NCBI GenBank assembly: GCA_012729395.1
Contig: JAAYDF010000292.1
Span: 1-37,170, forward strand
DNA: 37,170 bases
Reading direction: 5' to 3'
Origin: Phycisphaerae bacterium
Lineage (GTDB): Bacteria > Planctomycetota > Phycisphaerae > UBA1845 > PWPN01
Under the pieces are notes generated by a model, which saw only the letters and a list, made by a program, of their open reading frames with translations, searched no databases and was not told where the DNA came from. Position numbers and translations under genes: made by a program. Of the stretch, positions 1,448 to 8,799 are shown in pieces (positions within the stretch are counted from its first letter, which is position 1; the number at the start of each line of letters is the position of its first letter).

Positions 1448-2794
1448 ATGCGCTGGTTTGTCGACGCCTGCTATCTGTTGGCCGCTGTGCTGCTCAGCCC
1501 CCTCGTGGCCTACCGAGCCATCACCCTGGGCAAGTACCGGCAGGATTGGGGGCAGCGCCGGGGCTGGCTGCCTGAATTGGGGCCGGCGGCCCGCAGGATC
1601 TGGTTCCATGCCGTCTCGGTCGGCGAAATCAATGCGGTTCGAGGCCTTATCCAGGCATGGCGGCTCCGAGAGCCGCAGAGCGAGATCGTCATCTCCTGCA
1701 CCACCGACACCGGGTTGGCCCGCGCCCGCGAGCTCTTTGGCGATCTGACCGTGGTCCGCTATCCGTTGGATCTCAGCCGCTTCGTGGATCGGGCCCTGGA
1801 CCGCATCCGGCCGACGATGATCGTCCTGGTCGAACTGGAGGTCTGGTACCAGTTCGTGACCCGCGCCGCCGCCCGCGGCATCCCGGTAGCCGTCGTTAAC
1901 GGGCGACTCAGTGAGCGAAGTGTCCGACGGCTCGCGTGGGTACGCTTCCTGGCCGGCCGCATGTTCAGGTCGCTGGCGTGGGTCGGAGCCCAGGACGAGA
2001 CCTATGCCGAGCGGTTTCGACGGATGGGTGTCCCGCCCGAGCGCGTCCGTGTGACCAGCTCGATGAAGTGGGATACGGCCGAACTCGCGGATCATCTGCC
2101 CGGCAGCGAGGCCCTGGCTCAGGCCATGGGCATCGACCCCGCCCAGCCGACCTGGGTGTGCGGCAGCACCGGCCCGGATGAGGAGGCCGTCATCATCAAG
2201 GCCCGCGATCGGCTGGTCCGCGATCACCCGGGCTTACAGGTGGTGCTGGTGCCGCGCAAGCCCGAGCGCTTCGAGGAGGTCGCTGCCTTGGTTCGCCGCA
2301 GGGGCCTCAGGTGCGTGCGACGCAGCGAATCGCCCGACGGCACCCGGCGGGAGCCCGCGGTGAATACCGTCTTCCTCGGTGATACCATGGGCGAGTTGCG
2401 GAAAATCTACACGCTCGCGGACGTGGTGTTCGTGGGTCGCACATTGGCACCGATGGGCGGATCAGACATGATGGAAGTGGCGGCGCTGGCCAAACCGGTG
2501 GTCGTGGGGCCGCATACGGAGAACTTCGTCGACACCGTCCAGCGGCTCGCCGAGGCGGACGCCATTCGGATCGTGCCAATCAATGTATCGAGGACCGAGG
2601 TGGTGGACGCCCTGGCCCGCACCATCGGCGACTTGCTCAAGGACCGCCAAGTCGCCCGTGCCCAGGGACTGGCCGGCCGCCAGGTTGTCCAGCGTAACCG
2701 TGGTGCCATCGAACGCACCTTGAACGCACTTGTGGAGATTCTTGACCGTGCCAAGCACCATGCTCCGCCAACAGTTGATGAAGAACGTCCATAA
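1448..2794 (+). CDS. waaA: 3-deoxy-D-manno-octulosonic acid (Kdo) transferase
   Basis: Transfers Kdo from CMP-Kdo to lipid A precursor at the inner face of the cytoplasmic membrane, a step of LPS inner-core synthesis. The 448-residue product has the family layout. An N-terminal membrane anchor (residues 5-25) precedes the HAVSVGE motif carrying the catalytic Glu60. A GT-B C-terminal half follows, with STGPDEE, VPRKPERF and the signature FVGRTLAPMGGSDMMEVAA, then PVVVGPHTENF. Length is slightly above the usual 420-430. The ATG at 1448 directly follows a -10-like box and has no Shine-Dalgarno. The gene overlaps proB downstream, implying one transcript. Its presence shows that this organism makes Kdo-type lipid A. 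Confidence 0.93.
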   Translation: MRWFVDACYLLAAVLLSPLVAYRAITLGKYRQDWGQRRGWLPELGPAARRIWFHAVSVGEINAVRGLIQAWRLREPQSEIVISCTTDTGLARARELFGDLTVVRYPLDLSRFVDRALDRIRPTMIVLVELEVWYQFVTRAAARGIPVAVVNGRLSERSVRRLAWVRFLAGRMFRSLAWVGAQDETYAERFRRMGVPPERVRVTSSMKWDTAELADHLPGSEALAQAMGIDPAQPTWVCGSTGPDEEAVIIKARDRLVRDHPGLQVVLVPRKPERFEEVAALVRRRGLRCVRRSESPDGTRREPAVNTVFLGDTMGELRKIYTLADVVFVGRTLAPMGGSDMMEVAALAKPVVVGPHTENFVDTVQRLAEADAIRIVPINVSRTEVVDALARTIGDLLKDRQVARAQGLAGRQVVQRNRGAIERTLNALVEILDRAKHHAPPTVDEERP

Positions 2795-3878
2795 CCTTGT
2801 CGTGAAGGTGGGGACCAACCTGCTGACCGACACCGCGGGACGGCTCGACAAGGTGATGATCAACGCCATCGGCCGCCAATTGGGCCTGCTGAGTGAGCGG
2901 GGAATCCATGTTACGCTGATCACCAGCGGGGCTGTTGGGTCGGGCATGGGTATTGCGGGGCTGACCAGCAGGCCCCGGGAACTGCCCGTATTGCAGGCTT
3001 CGGCGGCCATCGGACAGCCCACCTTGATGGCTCTCTACGCCCGAGCCCTCAGCCGGTTCGGCATGCATGCCGGGCAGCTCCTCGTCACACGAGACGATTT
3101 TGAGCACCGCTCCCGCTACCTCAATATCCGCAACACCGTCGGCGCGTTGCATCGCCTGCGAGCCGTACCCATCATCAACGAGAACGACACCACCGCCGTC
3201 GTCGAGCTTGGCCGGTTTGCCGACAACGATACCATTGCGGCTCTGGTCGCCAATCTCATCAAGGCGGACCTGCTTGTCCTGCTGACCGTCGCCGACGGAT
3301 TGCTGAATACCGAGGGGCAGCGGATCGACCTGGTCCCGCGGGTGACGCCCGAGGTTCTCAAGCTGGCCCGGGCGGAGAAGTCGGCCCTGGGCAGCGGGGG
3401 CATGGGTAGCAAGTTGCGGGCGGTGAGCATGGTGACCGAGGCCGGCGAAACCGTCGTCATCGCCCACGGCAGAGAACGCAATGTCCTCCTGCGATTGCTG
3501 GAAGGCGAACGATTGGGGACGATCTTCGCACCCGCCGAGCACAAGATGTCCGCTCGGCAACGCTGGCTGCGTAGCGCCGTTCGGCCTGTGGGGCGGCTGA
3601 TGCTCGACGACGGCGCCGCCGACGCCGTCCTTCGCAAGAACAAGAGCCTGTTGCCGCGAGGGATCACCGCCGTGACCGGCCGGTTTGAACGCGGGGCCGT
3701 CGTCGCCCTGGTCAATCCTGCCGGCCAGACCATCGCCCACGGCGTCGTCAACTATGGCAACGCCGACCTCGATCGCATCAAGGGCCTCAAGTCCGCCGAG
3801 ATCGCCGCCGCCCTCGGCGCCAAACCCTTCGACGAAGCCGTCCACCGTGACCACCTCGTGGTGATCGCTGGCCAGTAG
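2748..3878 (+). CDS. proB: Glutamate 5-kinase
   Basis: Phosphorylates L-glutamate to gamma-glutamyl phosphate with ATP, the first step of proline synthesis in the cytosol. The protein has an amino-acid-kinase domain with VKVGTNLL, ITSGAVGSGM, INENDTTAV, FADNDTIAALVA and GSGGMGSKL, followed by a C-terminal PUA domain from about residue 280, as in full-length ProB. I chose the GTG at 2748 (376 residues), which has GGAGA upstream at a 9-nt spacing inside waaA. ATGs at 2760 and 2778 are alternatives and have poorer ribosome-binding sites. The gene overlaps the waaA 3' end by 47 nt from this start, so translation is probably coupled. proA, the usual partner, is not adjacent. The LPS/proline pairing has no obvious functional logic. 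Confidence 0.93.
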   Translation: MPSTMLRQQLMKNVHNLVVKVGTNLLTDTAGRLDKVMINAIGRQLGLLSERGIHVTLITSGAVGSGMGIAGLTSRPRELPVLQASAAIGQPTLMALYARALSRFGMHAGQLLVTRDDFEHRSRYLNIRNTVGALHRLRAVPIINENDTTAVVELGRFADNDTIAALVANLIKADLLVLLTVADGLLNTEGQRIDLVPRVTPEVLKLARAEKSALGSGGMGSKLRAVSMVTEAGETVVIAHGRERNVLLRLLEGERLGTIFAPAEHKMSARQRWLRSAVRPVGRLMLDDGAADAVLRKNKSLLPRGITAVTGRFERGAVVALVNPAGQTIAHGVVNYGNADLDRIKGLKSAEIAAALGAKPFDEAVHRDHLVVIAGQ

Positions 3879-4170: not shown

Positions 4171-5343
4171 TCAACGAACGGTTCCGAGTTGGCCTTCGAG
4201 GGATTGGTGAATCAGTGGTTTGGCCTCCTCCAACTGAGCCATGTTGCTTAGGGCAAGCTGCAAGTCTCCAACGCCGAAGTGGCCAAGGTTGGATACATCA
4301 CGAGCGAATGAGGGTGGATTGACCAACCGGCTGTGTTTCAGTTTCAGGCATACCCGGATATCGCCTTTCTGTAGGTGGACGCAGCAGAATATGGCCTTTC
4401 CGTGCAAGTAGTTGATTGTCATTTTGGTGTACCGTCGCTGGATGTCTCCGGGTTTCAGAGAAAGGCAAAGTCGGTCGATTGCTCGATAGAGTTCTACAAT
4501 CTCCCGTGGCTTGCCGGCTGTATGGTGTGATTCGCTATATGGTGACGGTGTTCGCCCTGCTCCGGCTCTCCGCGTAGCCCAGGCTCTTCGAGCGCCTTGG
4601 CTTCTCAGCGATAGTCCCTGCTCATTGAGGTTTCGCCGTTGTGTAGGTCCGGACGTGGTGGACTGTGGTGTGGTGGCCCCCTGCGCCCAGATGCGAGCGA
4701 GGCTCTCTTTGATGCGGCGCGGGCTCAACCCTCCGTCATCCGAGGCGGAACGCACGAGGTTGAGCAGAACCCGCGGAGCATCGCGCATGATACCGTCGAG
4801 TGCCTTGCGAACCTTGCTATCCGTGAAGGTCTGCTCTCCGATGGCATCCAGGGTTCCCTTGGCCATATCCTCCCGGGAAAACCGCCACATCTGACTCGCG
4901 ATCTGCTCTACGGATAGGCCCTCGTGGTCGCGGGTGTCCAGCGACACCTCAAACATGAGTTTATCCGGCGCTGGGCATTCTTCGACGCTCCGATAGACTT
5001 TCCAGACGACCCCATTGGTCAGGATGCACCACACAATCCCGGCATTGGCTGCGTACCCGACAACCTGCGTAATCCCTTTGACATCATTGAGGGGATCGTC
5101 GAGGGGCTTCGCCTCGACCAGCAGCACGGGTTTCCCATTGATGAGCAATGCGTAATCCACCGATTTTCCGTCCACGGTGGGGTACTCAAGTTGCACCTCA
5201 TCAGGATCCCGAACGTCATAACCCAGGGCTTCGAGAAGCGGGTCGATGATGATAGTTCGTGTCGGGGTTTCCTTCAACGATCGTTTCCGCAGACCGTCGA
5301 GTTTGGCTCGAATGTCCTCAATCGCACGCACGAGCTTATCCAT
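4171..5343 (-). CDS. Orphan type I restriction R-subunit N-terminal-like nuclease fused to a DUF5655-like domain
   Basis: A 390-residue protein of two parts. Residues 1-150 match the type I restriction enzyme R-protein N-terminal (HSDR_N) fold. A PD-(D/E)xK-type signature is visible: Asp63 in SVDYALLINGK, then LLVEAK with Glu77 and Lys79, then QVVGYAANAGI and CILTNGVVWKVY. There are no helicase motifs. A basic, low-complexity linker (about 230-285) leads to a C-terminal domain, YTKMTINYLHGKAIFCCVHL to RDVSNLGHFGVGDLQLAL, typical of DUF5655. The start at 5343 has GGAGG 8 nt upstream. No HsdM, HsdS or helicase gene is nearby. GC is visibly lower (about 50% in 4321-4440) than in flanking genes (about 65%), suggesting acquisition. 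Nuclease activity and any defence role are inferences. Confidence 0.78.
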   Translation of the reverse strand: MDKLVRAIEDIRAKLDGLRKRSLKETPTRTIIIDPLLEALGYDVRDPDEVQLEYPTVDGKSVDYALLINGKPVLLVEAKPLDDPLNDVKGITQVVGYAANAGIVWCILTNGVVWKVYRSVEECPAPDKLMFEVSLDTRDHEGLSVEQIASQMWRFSREDMAKGTLDAIGEQTFTDSKVRKALDGIMRDAPRVLLNLVRSASDDGGLSPRRIKESLARIWAQGATTPQSTTSGPTQRRNLNEQGLSLRSQGARRAWATRRAGAGRTPSPYSESHHTAGKPREIVELYRAIDRLCLSLKPGDIQRRYTKMTINYLHGKAIFCCVHLQKGDIRVCLKLKHSRLVNPPSFARDVSNLGHFGVGDLQLALSNMAQLEEAKPLIHQSLEGQLGTVR

Positions 5344-5741: not shown

Positions 5742-7103
5742 TCAGTTATACGTCGTCAGCCGGATGGCCTCGCGGTAGATATCGACGCACTGGCGGGCGG
5801 AGTCGCACCACGAGAGCCGGCGGACGTCGAGTCGGCCCTGCTCGCGGAGGGTGGTCTGGAGAGGGCGGTGGCGAAGCACGGCGATGATCTTATTGGCCAT
5901 CTCGTTCACGTCCCAGAAGTCCACCTTCAGGGCGTGGTTGATGACCTCGGAGACACCCGACTGCTTGCTGATAATCACCGGTACATCGTTGGACATGGCC
6001 TCCAGCGGGGCGATGCCGAAGGGCTCGGACACGCTGGGCATGACGTAGAGGTCGGCCATGCGAAAGACACGCTCCACGTCACCACCGCGCAAAAAACCGG
6101 TGAAGAGCACCTTGTGCCCGATGCCCATCTCGGCGGCGAGTTGGATGGTGCGCCGGATCATGTCCCCCCAACCCGCCATGATGAACCGGACGTTGTCCAT
6201 GACCTCGAGAACCTTCTTCGCGGCAGCAAGGAAGTACTCCGGCCCCTTCTGCATGGTGATGCGACCAAGGAAGAGGACAAGCTTCTCGTCCCGGCGGATG
6301 GGGGCGATGGTTGACGGCGGCTGCACGCCGTTGAAGTCGATGGCATTGTAGACGACCGCGATCTTCTCCGCGTCCACCCCGTATCGCGCGGTCACGATGT
6401 TGCGGGTCAGGTGGCTGACGGTGATGATCTTCTGGGCAAAGTGCATGCCCTGCCGCTCGATGTCGTAGATGCGCTGGTTGACGTGCTCCCCGCTGCGGTC
6501 GAACTCGGTCGAGTGCACGTGTATGACCAGCGGTTTGCCACTGAGGATCGAGACGGCAATGCCTGCCCGGTAGGTCATCCAGTCGTGAGCATGGATCACG
6601 TCGAACTCTTCATGCTCGGCGATCGCAGTAGCCAGCCGGGCGTAGCGCTCGGTCTGGGCGAACATGTCGCCGTCGTAGTCCGACGCCGTCGCTTCGGGAA
6701 CAGCCCGGGCGGAGGTCTGGGCCTGGGTTGGGTTTTCGCCCTCGGTCTGGCTTTCGCCGTGATCGACCACGCGCATCTTCGCCGCCCGCTCGCGCATCAA
6801 CTCCGCGTATTGCTCAGGACTGTGGTAGGGCGACATACCGCCAGCCGCCTCCACCGTGCAGAACTTGACGTGTTCGAGTTCCTCGACCTCGTAGTCCGAA
6901 ACCAGCCCGGACATTCGCTTGCGCGCCGACTTGGGCGTCAGCAGTTTGACGTGGCTGCTCTCCTGCGATTGGACGGGCTTGGGTAAGACAAACAGAACGT
7001 TCGCTCCGATCTGGCTCATCGCTTTGGTCAGACCGTAGCAAGCGGTACCGAGCCCGCCGGAAATGAACGGCGGGAATTCCCAACCCAGCATCAAGACTTT
7101 CAT
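5742..7103 (-). CDS. Glycosyltransferase family 4/5-like protein (glycogen/starch synthase-like)
   Basis: A GT-B retaining glycosyltransferase of 453 residues. The N-terminus MKVLMLGWEFPPFISGGLGT carries the GGLG nucleotide-sugar loop. FDVIHAHDWMT and VIHVHSTEFDRSG close the acceptor domain. The C-terminal donor domain has VLFLGRITMQKGPEYFL and MPSVSEPFGIAPLEAMS, the E-x7-E region of family GT4. It resembles the short glycogen-synthase-like GT4 proteins common in Planctomycetes and Bacteroidetes. Substrate cannot be assigned; alpha-glucan or glycoconjugate synthesis are possible. Residues about 115-145 form an acidic, Gln/Thr/Ala-rich insertion that looks disordered. Transcribed alone from the promoter at 7300-7328, with a leader of about 190 nt. 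The ATG at 7103 has GGGAG about 11 nt upstream. Confidence 0.88.
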   Translation of the reverse strand: MKVLMLGWEFPPFISGGLGTACYGLTKAMSQIGANVLFVLPKPVQSQESSHVKLLTPKSARKRMSGLVSDYEVEELEHVKFCTVEAAGGMSPYHSPEQYAELMRERAAKMRVVDHGESQTEGENPTQAQTSARAVPEATASDYDGDMFAQTERYARLATAIAEHEEFDVIHAHDWMTYRAGIAVSILSGKPLVIHVHSTEFDRSGEHVNQRIYDIERQGMHFAQKIITVSHLTRNIVTARYGVDAEKIAVVYNAIDFNGVQPPSTIAPIRRDEKLVLFLGRITMQKGPEYFLAAAKKVLEVMDNVRFIMAGWGDMIRRTIQLAAEMGIGHKVLFTGFLRGGDVERVFRMADLYVMPSVSEPFGIAPLEAMSNDVPVIISKQSGVSEVINHALKVDFWDVNEMANKIIAVLRHRPLQTTLREQGRLDVRRLSWCDSARQCVDIYREAIRLTTYN

Positions 7104-7467
7104 GACTGCCTAGACTCCCGCTGGCGTTAATGAAGACCGTTCCATCCGCCTTCCGCTGCTCCTTGCCTCCGGTCGTCGATGCCGCCTGAACACGGCGATT
7201 GGCGTTTGCGATTTGGGCTTCTCTTGCGCGAGACAGCCCCGTCGGTGTCCGAGTACCGCAGGTACCCGGCTTCTGGTCGTGAGATCCATCTCCGAAATGA
7301 ACATATACCGTATTCACGGACCTGTCAAATGATTGAGTGCGTTTTAGGCCTGTGAGTTTGTCGCCGGCGAACCATGAATGCCGGGGTGGGGCATTTACCG
7401 GTCGGTGCAGTCCGGTTACGCTGCAGCCAAGACGTGGACAGAAATCCGTCCGCTAGGAGCCAGGCGA
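7104..7467. other. Divergent intergenic region and long leader of the glycosyltransferase gene
   Basis: About 360 bp between divergent genes. It holds the minus-strand promoter at 7300-7328 and hence a leader of about 190 nt (7293 to 7104) before the glycosyltransferase start. I see no known riboswitch consensus in that leader. The plus-strand oxidoreductase start at 7468 has AGGAG upstream but no strong promoter. Confidence 0.55.
7300..7328 (-). promoter_or_regulatory. Sigma-70-type promoter of the glycosyltransferase gene
   Basis: On the minus strand: perfect TTGACA (7328-7323), a 17-bp spacer and TATGTT (7305-7300). This is among the best promoter matches in the window and stands out in GC-rich DNA. 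The expected transcription start is near 7293. Confidence 0.7.
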
Positions 7468-8799
7468 ATGTCTCGACCCGGAATCTCACGGCGATACCTG
7501 CTTCAAAAGGCGGCACTTTGTACTGCCGGGGTTGAATTGGCGACCGGTCCGGCTCGTGCCACGGCTGGACGAATCCTCGGCGCCAATGATCGGATTTCAG
7601 TGGGAATGGTTGGCCCAGGCGCTCGCGGATTGCAGCTCATGGACTGGATTCACCGCCTCTCCCGAGCCGAAAACCTTGAACTCACAGGGGTTTGCGACAT
7701 CTGGAACGAGAGACGGGAATCCGCCGTTGAGATGGTCAAAGCCTGGACAGGGCGGGTGCCTCATGCTTGCCGCACCATGGCCGAGATGTGCGAACGCAAG
7801 GATATTGACGTGTTGGTGGTCTCAACGGTTGACTTCCAGCACGCTCCCCTCGCGCGGCAGGCAGTGGAGGCAGGCAAGGACGTTTACGTCGAGAAGCCCT
7901 TCGGTTGCGACTTCGAGCAGATCAAACTGGCCCGTGAAGCGATCCGCGCCAGCGACCGTGTTTTTCAGGCCGGAACGCAGCTTCGCTCGAACGGCGTTCC
8001 GTGGGCGGCTCACGAGTTCATCGCCAAGGGACGGCTGGGCAAGGTCAGCTTCGTCGAGCTGGTGCAGCCGCTCTTTCATCAGCGATGGCGCATTCCAGGG
8101 GCCGAGACCGCTCTGACGGAGAAAGACACAAACTGGAAGGAATTCCTGTGCTACGCGCCGCAGGTGCCTTTCAACGCCCGGCACTATCGCGAGTTCCGTC
8201 TCTTCTGGCCCTACTCGACGGGCATCTTCTGCCAGTGGATGAGCCACATCATCGACCTCGTGAACCTCGTGCTGGGCGAGCGGCCTAAGGCTGTTGTCGC
8301 GGCAGGGGGAACCTACGTCTGGAACGACGGTCGAACCAATCCCGACACCGCTCATTGTCTGGTCGAGTATCCGAGCGGTTGTTTGATGAGCTACCACATG
8401 CGGCTGGGCAACGGGGCCCATGCTCGGCCGCTTACATTCTATGGTACCAACGGGACGCTGGATCTGGACGCGGGGGTAGCCTATGGAGACGGAGGTGGGG
8501 GGGAAGTGATCCTGGCGAATCCCGGATCGCTAATCCCGGAGTTGATCGTCGACGCTTCGCGTCGCTTGCCCGACCGGCATCAAGGCGCCACCATTCTTGA
8601 CGCCGAGCCCGATGGCGACCACATGGTGGATTTCTTCCGCGCCGTGCGAACGCGGTGCCCGACTCGTGCCGGCGTGGATGCCGCCTTCAATCACGCTCTG
8701 GCGACGACCATGGCGGGGATGTCCTGGCGCCTTGGCGCACGGATCGAGTATGACCCCATCGCCGACAGCCTCAACGTCGGCGAACCGAGGAAGCGCTGA
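7468..8799 (+). CDS. Tat-exported Gfo/Idh/MocA family oxidoreductase
   Basis: NAD(P)-dependent oxidoreductase of the Gfo/Idh/MocA superfamily, which acts on sugars or cyclitols; the substrate is unknown. The 443-residue product starts with a twin-arginine signal (SRRYLLQKAALCTAG) and an Ala-rich cleavage region, then the Rossmann start RISVGMVGPGARG. VCDIWNERR follows, and the EKPFGCD motif carries the conserved Lys. The C-terminal half has the alpha/beta substrate domain with HIIDLVNLVLGE. The start at 7468 has AGGAG at about 8 nt and gives the Tat signal; the frame is open upstream but poorly supported. Tat-exported members of this family are greatly expanded in Planctomycetes. The gene is convergent with the kinase gene, leaving only 27 bp between their ends. 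Confidence 0.9.
   Translation: MSRPGISRRYLLQKAALCTAGVELATGPARATAGRILGANDRISVGMVGPGARGLQLMDWIHRLSRAENLELTGVCDIWNERRESAVEMVKAWTGRVPHACRTMAEMCERKDIDVLVVSTVDFQHAPLARQAVEAGKDVYVEKPFGCDFEQIKLAREAIRASDRVFQAGTQLRSNGVPWAAHEFIAKGRLGKVSFVELVQPLFHQRWRIPGAETALTEKDTNWKEFLCYAPQVPFNARHYREFRLFWPYSTGIFCQWMSHIIDLVNLVLGERPKAVVAAGGTYVWNDGRTNPDTAHCLVEYPSGCLMSYHMRLGNGAHARPLTFYGTNGTLDLDAGVAYGDGGGGEVILANPGSLIPELIVDASRRLPDRHQGATILDAEPDGDHMVDFFRAVRTRCPTRAGVDAAFNHALATTMAGMSWRLGARIEYDPIADSLNVGEPRKR

What the first reader, a model, noticed from the sequence alone, without database searches (positions are those of the whole stretch)
4171..5343. Orphan HSDR_N nuclease fused to a DUF5655-like domain in a low-GC patch
The sequence shows a PD-(D/E)xK-like site (Asp63, Glu77, Lys79) from the N-terminal domain of type I restriction R subunits, without helicase, methylase or specificity genes nearby. 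It carries a C-terminal DUF5655-type domain instead. GC content is visibly lower than in the flanking core genes. Stand-alone proteins of this kind could be single-gene nucleases for defence or DNA processing. The function is inference.
Basis: partly seen in the sequence, partly recalled or inferred. Interest (0 to 1): 0.55.

Follow-up and report, generated by a model that had tools for sequence, protein, structure and literature searches.

The report
Mobile single-gene DNA-cutting enzyme, probably defensive
A lone bacterial gene joins the DNA-cutting part of a classic restriction enzyme to a small domain whose fold resembles DNA-holding proteins; it hops between genomes and is probably a one-protein defence against foreign DNA, though nobody has tested it.

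Summary
Window 4171-5343 (-) is one intact 390-aa gene: an HsdR-type PD-(D/E)xK nuclease (HSDR_N, residues 51-118) plus C-terminal DUF5655 (273-381). D63, E77, K79, plus E53 and a QxxxY motif, are invariant in 39 of 39 aligned rows. It has the lowest GC, GC3 and codon adaptation of 27 window genes; no helicase, methylase or specificity gene was found among the other 26. Both refutation tests were survived: the triad is conserved, and the gene is absent from 12 of 12 family members, lies at the junction of two conserved gene blocks, and homologues sit at mostly unrelated loci (two 90%-identical copies share no neighbour gene). New here: DUF5655 models confidently as the YdhG/YjbR 'double wing' fold and is fused to three nuclease types (HsdR-N, NucS-like, GmrSD); the NucS-like form often lies in type I restriction loci; the HsdR-N module also occurs with RAMA in DUF5655's place; a full-length homologue is a low-GC insert in a phage head operon. 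Best reading: a mobile, single-chain, helicase-free restriction nuclease aimed by DUF5655, plausibly modification-dependent (type IV-like). Cleavage, DNA binding and defence are inferred. A new variant of a known kind.

The parts
4171..5343 (-). whole gene, 390 aa, HSDR_N + helical linker + DUF5655
   Evidence: dN/dS about 0.12 against the 77%-identical homologue in L026
4939..5343 (-). PD-(D/E)xK nuclease domain, residues 1-135
   Evidence: Pfam HSDR_N; AlphaFold2 block pLDDT mostly 71-97 with one block of 50 at residues 91-100; structural match to DrdV (Z 11.8), Vibrio HsdR fragment (Z 11.0), BpuSI (Z 10.3), EcoR124I HsdR (Z 8.6)
5107..5157 (-). catalytic residues D63 (5155-5157), E77 (5113-5115), K79 (5107-5109)
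   Evidence: invariant in 39 of 39 rows of A6
5053..5067 (-). QxxxY motif, Q93 to Y97
   Evidence: both residues invariant in 39 of 39 rows; the motif name is recalled from EcoR124I HsdR work
4540..4938 (-). helical then low-confidence linker, residues 136-268
   Evidence: helices to about residue 222; pLDDT under 50 at 224-269; least conserved part (66% identity to L026)
4180..4539 (-). DUF5655 domain, residues 269-388 (Pfam match 4201-4527)
   Evidence: model of residues 268-390 with mean pLDDT 90.5; YdhG/YjbR fold
4264..4308 (-). conserved FARDVSxxGHxGxGD signature of DUF5655, residues 346-360
   Evidence: F, R, D, G, H, G, D invariant in 8 of 8 rows of A2, which mixes two architectures; F, R, D, G, H, G, G invariant in 8 of 8 rows of A7
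1448..3878 (+). conserved left block WaaA (kdotransferase) - ProB (glutamate 5-kinase), not part of the system
5742..8799 (.). right block: glycosyltransferase (-, 5742-7103) and Gfo/Idh oxidoreductase (+, 7606-8799), not part of the system

Best explanation
The gene encodes a single-chain DNA endonuclease of the mobile defence gene pool. An HsdR-type PD-(D/E)xK domain cuts; it has no helicase motor and no methylase or specificity partner at the locus. The C-terminal DUF5655 domain, which has the YdhG/YjbR 'double wing' fold, takes the place of the specificity machinery and delivers the nuclease to target DNA. Because no cognate methylase at the locus protects the host, the simplest way to avoid self-cutting is that DUF5655 (or the dimer it forms) recognises something that foreign DNA has and host DNA lacks, such as a modified base; that would make it a type IV-like restriction enzyme. 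Shown: domain content, intact conserved active site, purifying selection, mobility, predicted fold. Inferred: cleavage, DNA binding, dependence on modification, protection from phage.
For: Active site invariant in 39 of 39 rows; nuclease fold matches restriction enzymes. Under selection: NG86 dN/dS about 0.12 (window/L026; dS near saturation) and 0.19 (L004/L050). Mobile: no type A copy in 12 of 12 family members; 7 of 114 genomes of the order and 3 of 392 of the phylum sample carry one, own genome included; DNA similarity to L026 beyond chance stops at the gene's ends; two 90%-identical copies share no neighbour; gene GC below the mean of its neighbours in 5 of 5 other bacterial loci measured, lowest of 27 in the window, and 0.393 against 0.586 in the viral contig. 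Type A copy in a phage contig, opposite in strand to a head-gene operon. DUF5655 is fused to three nuclease types: HsdR-N (here), NucS_C-like and GmrSD; 4 of 5 viral NucS-like copies lie beside type I restriction genes and the fifth beside a TIR gene, and one of four chromosomal copies lies inside a type I operon. The same nuclease module carries RAMA in DUF5655's place (Pfam in 3 of 3 scanned: L007, L030, L033). DUF5655 model: DUF1801 Z 10.4, YjbR Z 9.7, MotA C-terminal domain with DNA Z 6.5; [quoted passage not shown]
Against: No biochemical evidence. DUF5655 is found most often with DUF4287 in small proteins without a nuclease (read by eye), and its fold is shared with frataxin-like proteins, so the fold does not prove DNA binding; the MotA match (Z 6.5) is under the tool's own caution limit of 8. 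The window is not a defence island: the only PADLOC hit among 10 neighbours is a class V aminotransferase matching SspA/DndA. The phage copy lies next to a D12 adenine methylase gene, awkward for an adenine-methyl-dependent cutter. Only 9 bacterial genomes with type A were found, own included, and neighbour genes were compared without a random control.
Confidence: 0.5

Rival explanations
1. A signal-gated effector: DUF5655 is a sensor of a ligand or protein rather than a DNA reader, and the nuclease degrades DNA only when triggered by infection (abortive infection).
For: The DUF5655 fold is also that of frataxin-like and YdhG proteins; one homologue lies near a gene with a weak nucleoside-deoxyribosyltransferase match and a DUF433 gene, one about 4.9 kb from an Abi_2 gene, one beside DUF6978 and DUF1828/1829 genes; PADLOC lists DUF5655-bearing PDC-S18 as a candidate defence protein.
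Against: Nothing shows a ligand; DUF5655 joined to GmrSD and to type I-linked nucleases fits target reading better.
Confidence: 0.2
2. An auxiliary DNA-processing enzyme of mobile elements (recombination, excision or repair), as phage 'endonuclease' annotations suggest, not a defence.
For: Relatives of the nuclease half in temperate phages (phrog_4225, category 'DNA, RNA and nucleotide metabolism') lie in the repressor-integrase region: 103 of 112 distinct loci have a repressor or integrase match on the same strand within the held flank.
Against: That position is also typical of lysogen-expressed defence genes (recalled); no integrase was noticed beside the type A gene in the chromosomal loci read.
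Confidence: 0.15
3. An extra R-like subunit acting in trans with the two type I systems on contig C350 of the same genome.
For: Two N6_Mtase genes and two HSDR_N genes lie there.
Against: No translocase domain; homologues occur at unrelated loci and in a phage contig, with DUF5655 present in all complete copies aligned.
Confidence: 0.05
4. A decaying fragment of an hsdR gene.
For: Low GC and isolated position.
Against: Same two-domain layout in all complete homologues, invariant active site, dN/dS far below 1.
Confidence: 0.02

Closest known systems
HsdR subunit of type I restriction enzymes (EcoR124I, 2w00; Vibrio fragment 3h1t)
   Same: Nuclease domain family and fold; E, D, ExK and QxxxY residues of the HSDR_N family
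   Different: No SWI2/SNF2 motor, no HsdM/HsdS partner at the locus; DUF5655 instead
Type IIG enzymes DrdV and BpuSI
   Same: Among the best structural matches of the nuclease domain, Z 11.8 and 10.3
   Different: Those carry methylase and specificity domains in the same chain (recalled); none here
PADLOC candidate PDC-S18 / NucS_C-like + DUF5655 proteins
   Same: DUF5655 half, E 3.1e-21
   Different: The N-terminal half of the PDC-S18 profiles is not matched; the DUF5655 proteins of that layout carry a NucS_C-like, not an HSDR_N, domain
GmrSD type IV restriction enzymes with C-terminal DUF5655 (L094)
   Same: C-terminal DUF5655 after a nuclease
   Different: GmrS/GmrD domains instead of a PD-(D/E)xK domain
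HSDR_N-RAMA proteins (L007, L030, L033)
   Same: Homologous nuclease and helical middle, 29-37% identity to the window protein in the four RAMA-type rows of A3
   Different: RAMA in place of DUF5655
Stand-alone HSDR_N proteins of temperate phages (phrog_4225)
   Same: Nuclease half, E 2.5e-19 over residues 2-203
   Different: Different C-terminal half; different gene setting

Membership tests
Type I restriction R subunit (HsdR) | HSDR_N PD-(D/E)xK nuclease domain | tested here: met
Type I restriction R subunit (HsdR) | DNA-translocating helicase motor in the same chain | tested here: not met
   no helicase family in the 390 aa
Type I restriction R subunit (HsdR) | HsdM and HsdS partners in the locus | tested here: not met
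   none among the other 26 window genes; two methylase/R pairs lie on another contig
Type IV (modification-dependent) restriction enzyme | Nuclease without a cognate methylase at the locus | tested here: met
   none in the window
Type IV (modification-dependent) restriction enzyme | Domain that reads modified DNA | tested here: inconclusive
   DUF5655 has the YdhG/YjbR fold; ligand unknown
Type IV (modification-dependent) restriction enzyme | Cuts modified and not unmodified DNA | not testable with these tools
   needs purified protein
DUF5655 (PF18899) | Score above the Pfam gathering cut-off | tested here: met
   33 bits against 24
PDC-S18 (PADLOC) | Match over the whole profile | tested here: not met
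   only positions 198-323 of 365 and 188-301 of 302
phrog_4225 phage HSDR_N endonucleases | Match over the whole profile | tested here: not met
   positions 2-200 of 357 only
YdhG/YjbR (double-wing) fold | Structural match over most of the domain | tested here: met
   Z 10.4 over 111 residues at 2.9 A (2oc6), Z 9.7 over 100 residues at 3.0 A (2fki), next rows 6.5 and below
YdhG/YjbR (double-wing) fold | DNA binding | not testable with these tools
   predicted for YjbR in PMC7641849 (passages)

The most novel reading that the evidence does not exclude
DUF5655 is a DNA-reading module, probably for modified bases, that has been plugged into at least three unrelated restriction nucleases (HsdR-N, NucS-like, GmrSD) and is exchangeable with RAMA; the window gene is then the type of a helicase-free, single-chain, mobile class of modification-dependent restriction enzyme that nobody has assayed.
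Probability: 0.3. Interest if true: 0.68.

Novelty: new variant of a known kind. Interest (0 to 1): 0.5.

Why it matters
DUF5655 is a 'domain of unknown function' in Pfam and no paper in the held library names it. If it is a DNA reader, one assay on this 390-aa protein would assign a function to a domain found in 77 of 294 sampled genomes of this phylum and explain why the same domain follows HsdR-N, NucS-like and GmrSD nucleases. It would also give a compact restriction enzyme without a motor or a methylase.

Tried and rejected
Rejected: pseudogene or hsdR fragment; fixed core gene; R subunit of a local type I system.

Led nowhere: sequence search of PDB with the protein, with profile A1 and with a NucS-like relative gave no credible match (the six rows, E 0.06-0.6, are to helical parts and look like chance). 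The full-length model has low confidence in its C-terminal half (mean pLDDT 61.9), so the DUF5655 domain was modelled apart. Alignment A5 put the NucS-like fragments in the wrong place and was not used. Viral scans with A4 and with a Fusobacterium phage protein found no relatives. Foldseek alone gave no match at E 0.001 or better for either model; the fold claims rest on VIA-align 2 Z-scores. A tree of 10 type A rows resolved only two pairs, so it neither proves nor excludes transfer. Searches for print: DUF5655 0 papers, PDC-S18 0, 'HSDR_N + stand-alone + nuclease' 0, COG3586 2, 'HsdR N-terminal + prophage + defense' 1, 'HsdR + prophage + superinfection + orphan + integrase' 3; the library holds open-licence papers only.

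Not done: no computed base rate for repressor or integrase near random phage genes; no check that DUF5655's conserved residues face DNA. Rows absent from the VIA-align lists prove nothing.

Full report
What is there. The window is contig C269 of a 5.7-Mb genome in 370 contigs; its closest named relative found is a Phycisphaerae MAG. At 4171-5343 on the minus strand there is one intact gene of 390 aa starting with ATG (the frame is open further upstream). Pfam finds HSDR_N (E 2.1e-10, residues 51-118) and DUF5655 (E 6.7e-8, residues 273-381). PADLOC matches only the DUF5655 half to candidate PDC-S18 (E 3.1e-21), plus weaker matches of the nuclease half to a type IIG enzyme and to PDC-M54B. The gene is the lowest of the 27 predicted window genes in GC (0.569), GC3 (0.637) and CAI (0.516). 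None of the other 26 carries a restriction, helicase or methylase family (E limits 1e-6, 1e-10 and 1e-5; six of them, starting at 292, 10887, 12330, 14637, 15349 and 24034, have no match).

Active site. Six full-length sequences share E53, D63, E77, K79, Q93 and Y97. In an alignment of the window protein, L026, L051 and 36 diverse phage HSDR_N fragments the same six residues are invariant in 39 of 39 rows. The 36 were chosen by BLAST similarity to the window protein out of 157 and thinned for redundancy, so strongly diverged copies are under-represented. The modelled nuclease domain matches DrdV (Z 11.8), the Vibrio HsdR fragment 3h1t (Z 11.0), BpuSI (Z 10.3) and EcoR124I HsdR (Z 8.6). Selection: dN/dS about 0.12 against L026, where dS is near saturation, and 0.19 between the two 90%-identical copies L004 and L050; by domain against L026 about 0.04 (nuclease), 0.21 (linker) and 0.16 (DUF5655).

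Distribution and mobility. I call HSDR_N + DUF5655 'type A'. In the order, 7 of 114 genomes carry it, own included: G000, G460, G035, G048, G498, G050 and G054; G046, the eighth match, has RAMA instead. In a phylum sample, 3 of 392 do, own included (G269, G231); the other five matches of that search are of the RAMA kind by Pfam (G123, G215) or by eye (G063, G156, G328). None of the 12 other genomes of the own family has it. G050 and G054 copies are split over contig ends. In family members the WaaA-ProB pair is kept (6 of 6 ProB regions read), and the glycosyltransferase with its Gfo/Idh neighbour is kept in 2 of the 4 glycosyltransferase regions read (G002, G011). Among the 10 family members in which both genes were found they are on different contigs in 9 and 0.5 Mb apart on one contig in G005; in the more fragmented assemblies contig ends leave adjacency open. 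So the gene sits at the junction of two older blocks. DNA similarity to L026 beyond chance covers the gene only (74.6% over 1162 bases). Between homologue loci, close neighbour genes are shared only in G050/G054 (an aldehyde dehydrogenase and DUF433); G035 and G048 share a gene, by eye methylthioribose-phosphate isomerase, at different distances, and there are paralogue-level matches of an AAA/FtsH-like and an oxidoreductase gene. The copies in G048 and G498 are 90% identical and share no neighbour. The gene's GC is below the mean of its neighbours in 5 of 5 other bacterial loci measured (L026, L035, L036, L037, L040; G050, G054 and G498 were not measured) and is 0.393 against 0.586 in the viral contig L051.

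Neighbours of type A. G269: an Abi_2 gene 4.9 kb away; G498: DUF6978 and DUF1828/1829 directly downstream; G048: a nucleotidyltransferase-domain gene directly upstream; G035: a weak Y1 transposase match next door; G054: DUF433 and a weak nucleoside-deoxyribosyltransferase match. G231 (by eye) and the window (Pfam) have none of these. There is no random control, so this is suggestive only. In L051 the gene is on the strand opposite to a phage head-gene operon, between a head-morphogenesis-like gene (by eye) and a gene with D12 adenine methylase matches.

DUF5655. The isolated domain was modelled from 8 sequences with mean pLDDT 90.5. VIA-align places it with DUF1801/YdhG (2oc6, Z 10.4, 111 residues, 2.9 A), another YdhG-like protein (9t2w, Z 10.4), NB7804A (2kl4, Z 10.1), DUF419 (2a1v, Z 9.9) and YjbR (2fki, Z 9.7); then follow the T4 MotA C-terminal domain with DNA (5jlt, Z 6.5) and frataxins (about 6). 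Foldseek's top match is also YjbR but at E 0.069. PMC7641849 (passages) describes MmcQ/YjbR as a double-wing fold, predicted to bind DNA by likeness to MotA, and found fused to nucleases together with the modified-base reader EVE. DUF5655 occurs in 77 of 294 phylum genomes. Of the 30 loci opened, most read as DUF4287-DUF5655 by eye (L069 by Pfam); two are GmrSD-like (L094 confirmed by Pfam; L095 by eye), one NucS-like by eye (L096: only DUF5655 passes Pfam), and L082, L088 and L093 gave no readable DUF5655 gene. The NucS_C + DUF5655 form was confirmed by Pfam in the L014 protein and, below the NucS_C cut-off, in L068. Of five viral loci with that form, L064 (HsdR, HsdM and HsdS genes), L065 (HsdM), L066 (HsdR) and L068 (HsdM, HsdR) lie beside type I genes and L067 beside a TIR gene. 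Of four chromosomal ones, L046 lies inside a type I operon, L048 about 2.5 kb from a methylase-domain gene, and L045 and L047 show none by eye. PMC1189080 (one passage) already noted a COG3586 nuclease in a type I cluster of Methanosarcina acetivorans; that COG3586 is this NucS-like family is recalled. PMC4619093 (passages) lists DUF4268, DUF4357 and DNA_binding_1 as extra domains of GmrSD proteins; DUF5655 is not named in the passages seen.

The nuclease half elsewhere. HSDR_N with RAMA in DUF5655's place was confirmed in 3 of 3 proteins scanned (L007, L030, L033). Stand-alone HSDR_N proteins of about 355 aa are common in temperate phages: two viral scans confirmed 377 and 378 loci, overlapping sets, 80 kept from each. 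Of the 19 phage records with a match, 10 were opened: 8 have an annotated repressor, regulator or DNA-binding protein upstream on the same strand and 5 of these also an integrase downstream; the Porphyromonas phage does not fit and the Lacticaseibacillus phage has no functional annotation. Of 112 distinct viral loci, 76 have an integrase match and 84 a repressor match on the same strand in the held flank, 103 either. A random gene of a 40-kb prophage would have an integrase within 3 kb on one side less than a tenth of the time (my estimate, not a computed control). PMC8713573 (passages) reports such a protein in a phage-resistant Campylobacter strain and not in the sensitive one, without a test.

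Reading. A motor-less HsdR nuclease needs another way to find DNA. The C-terminal slot is filled by domains seen with restriction nucleases (DUF5655 or RAMA). With no methylase at hand, a cutter of ordinary DNA would harm its host, which favours a modification-dependent or triggered enzyme. I put the defence-nuclease reading with DUF5655 as the targeting domain at 0.5, and the bolder claim that DUF5655 is a shared modified-base reader at 0.3. The main weaknesses are the lack of any biochemistry, the many DUF5655 proteins without a nuclease, and the methylase beside the phage copy.

Verdict on novelty. The parts are known and the DUF5655 family is already a PADLOC candidate; what I did not find described is this two-domain single-gene form, its mobility, the fold of DUF5655, and the swapping of DUF5655 and RAMA across nucleases.

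Noticed in passing
L110-L266 (IMG/VR loci); L099-L109 (annotated records): Stand-alone HSDR_N genes of temperate phages sit in the repressor-integrase region in 103 of 112 distinct loci by a BLAST criterion: a likely prophage-borne defence family (phrog_4225).
   Followed up: partly
L094:1474-3333 (-), L095: GmrSD type IV restriction protein with a C-terminal DUF5655 domain (Pfam on L094; L095 by eye).
   Followed up: partly
L007, L030, L033: HSDR_N nuclease fused to RAMA, a second single-gene architecture in the same phylum.
   Followed up: partly
L051:4111-7614 (-): A 1168-aa phage protein with two stretches matching D12 adenine methylase and, by eye, a prohead-protease-like C-terminal part, in a head-gene operon.
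   Followed up: no
L026:4672-5040 (+): Upstream of the 77%-identical homologue, a short frame begins like a DNA methylase by eye; Pfam finds nothing, so it may be a remnant or chance.
   Followed up: partly
L042:431-622 (-): In G054 a short frame is 93% identical over 44 aa to part of the G050 aldehyde dehydrogenase, as if one end of that gene had been duplicated next to the nuclease gene.
   Followed up: no
own genome contig C350, 43-65 kb (L267, L268, L275, L277): Two N6_Mtase genes and two HSDR_N genes within 22 kb, probably two type I restriction systems.
   Followed up: no
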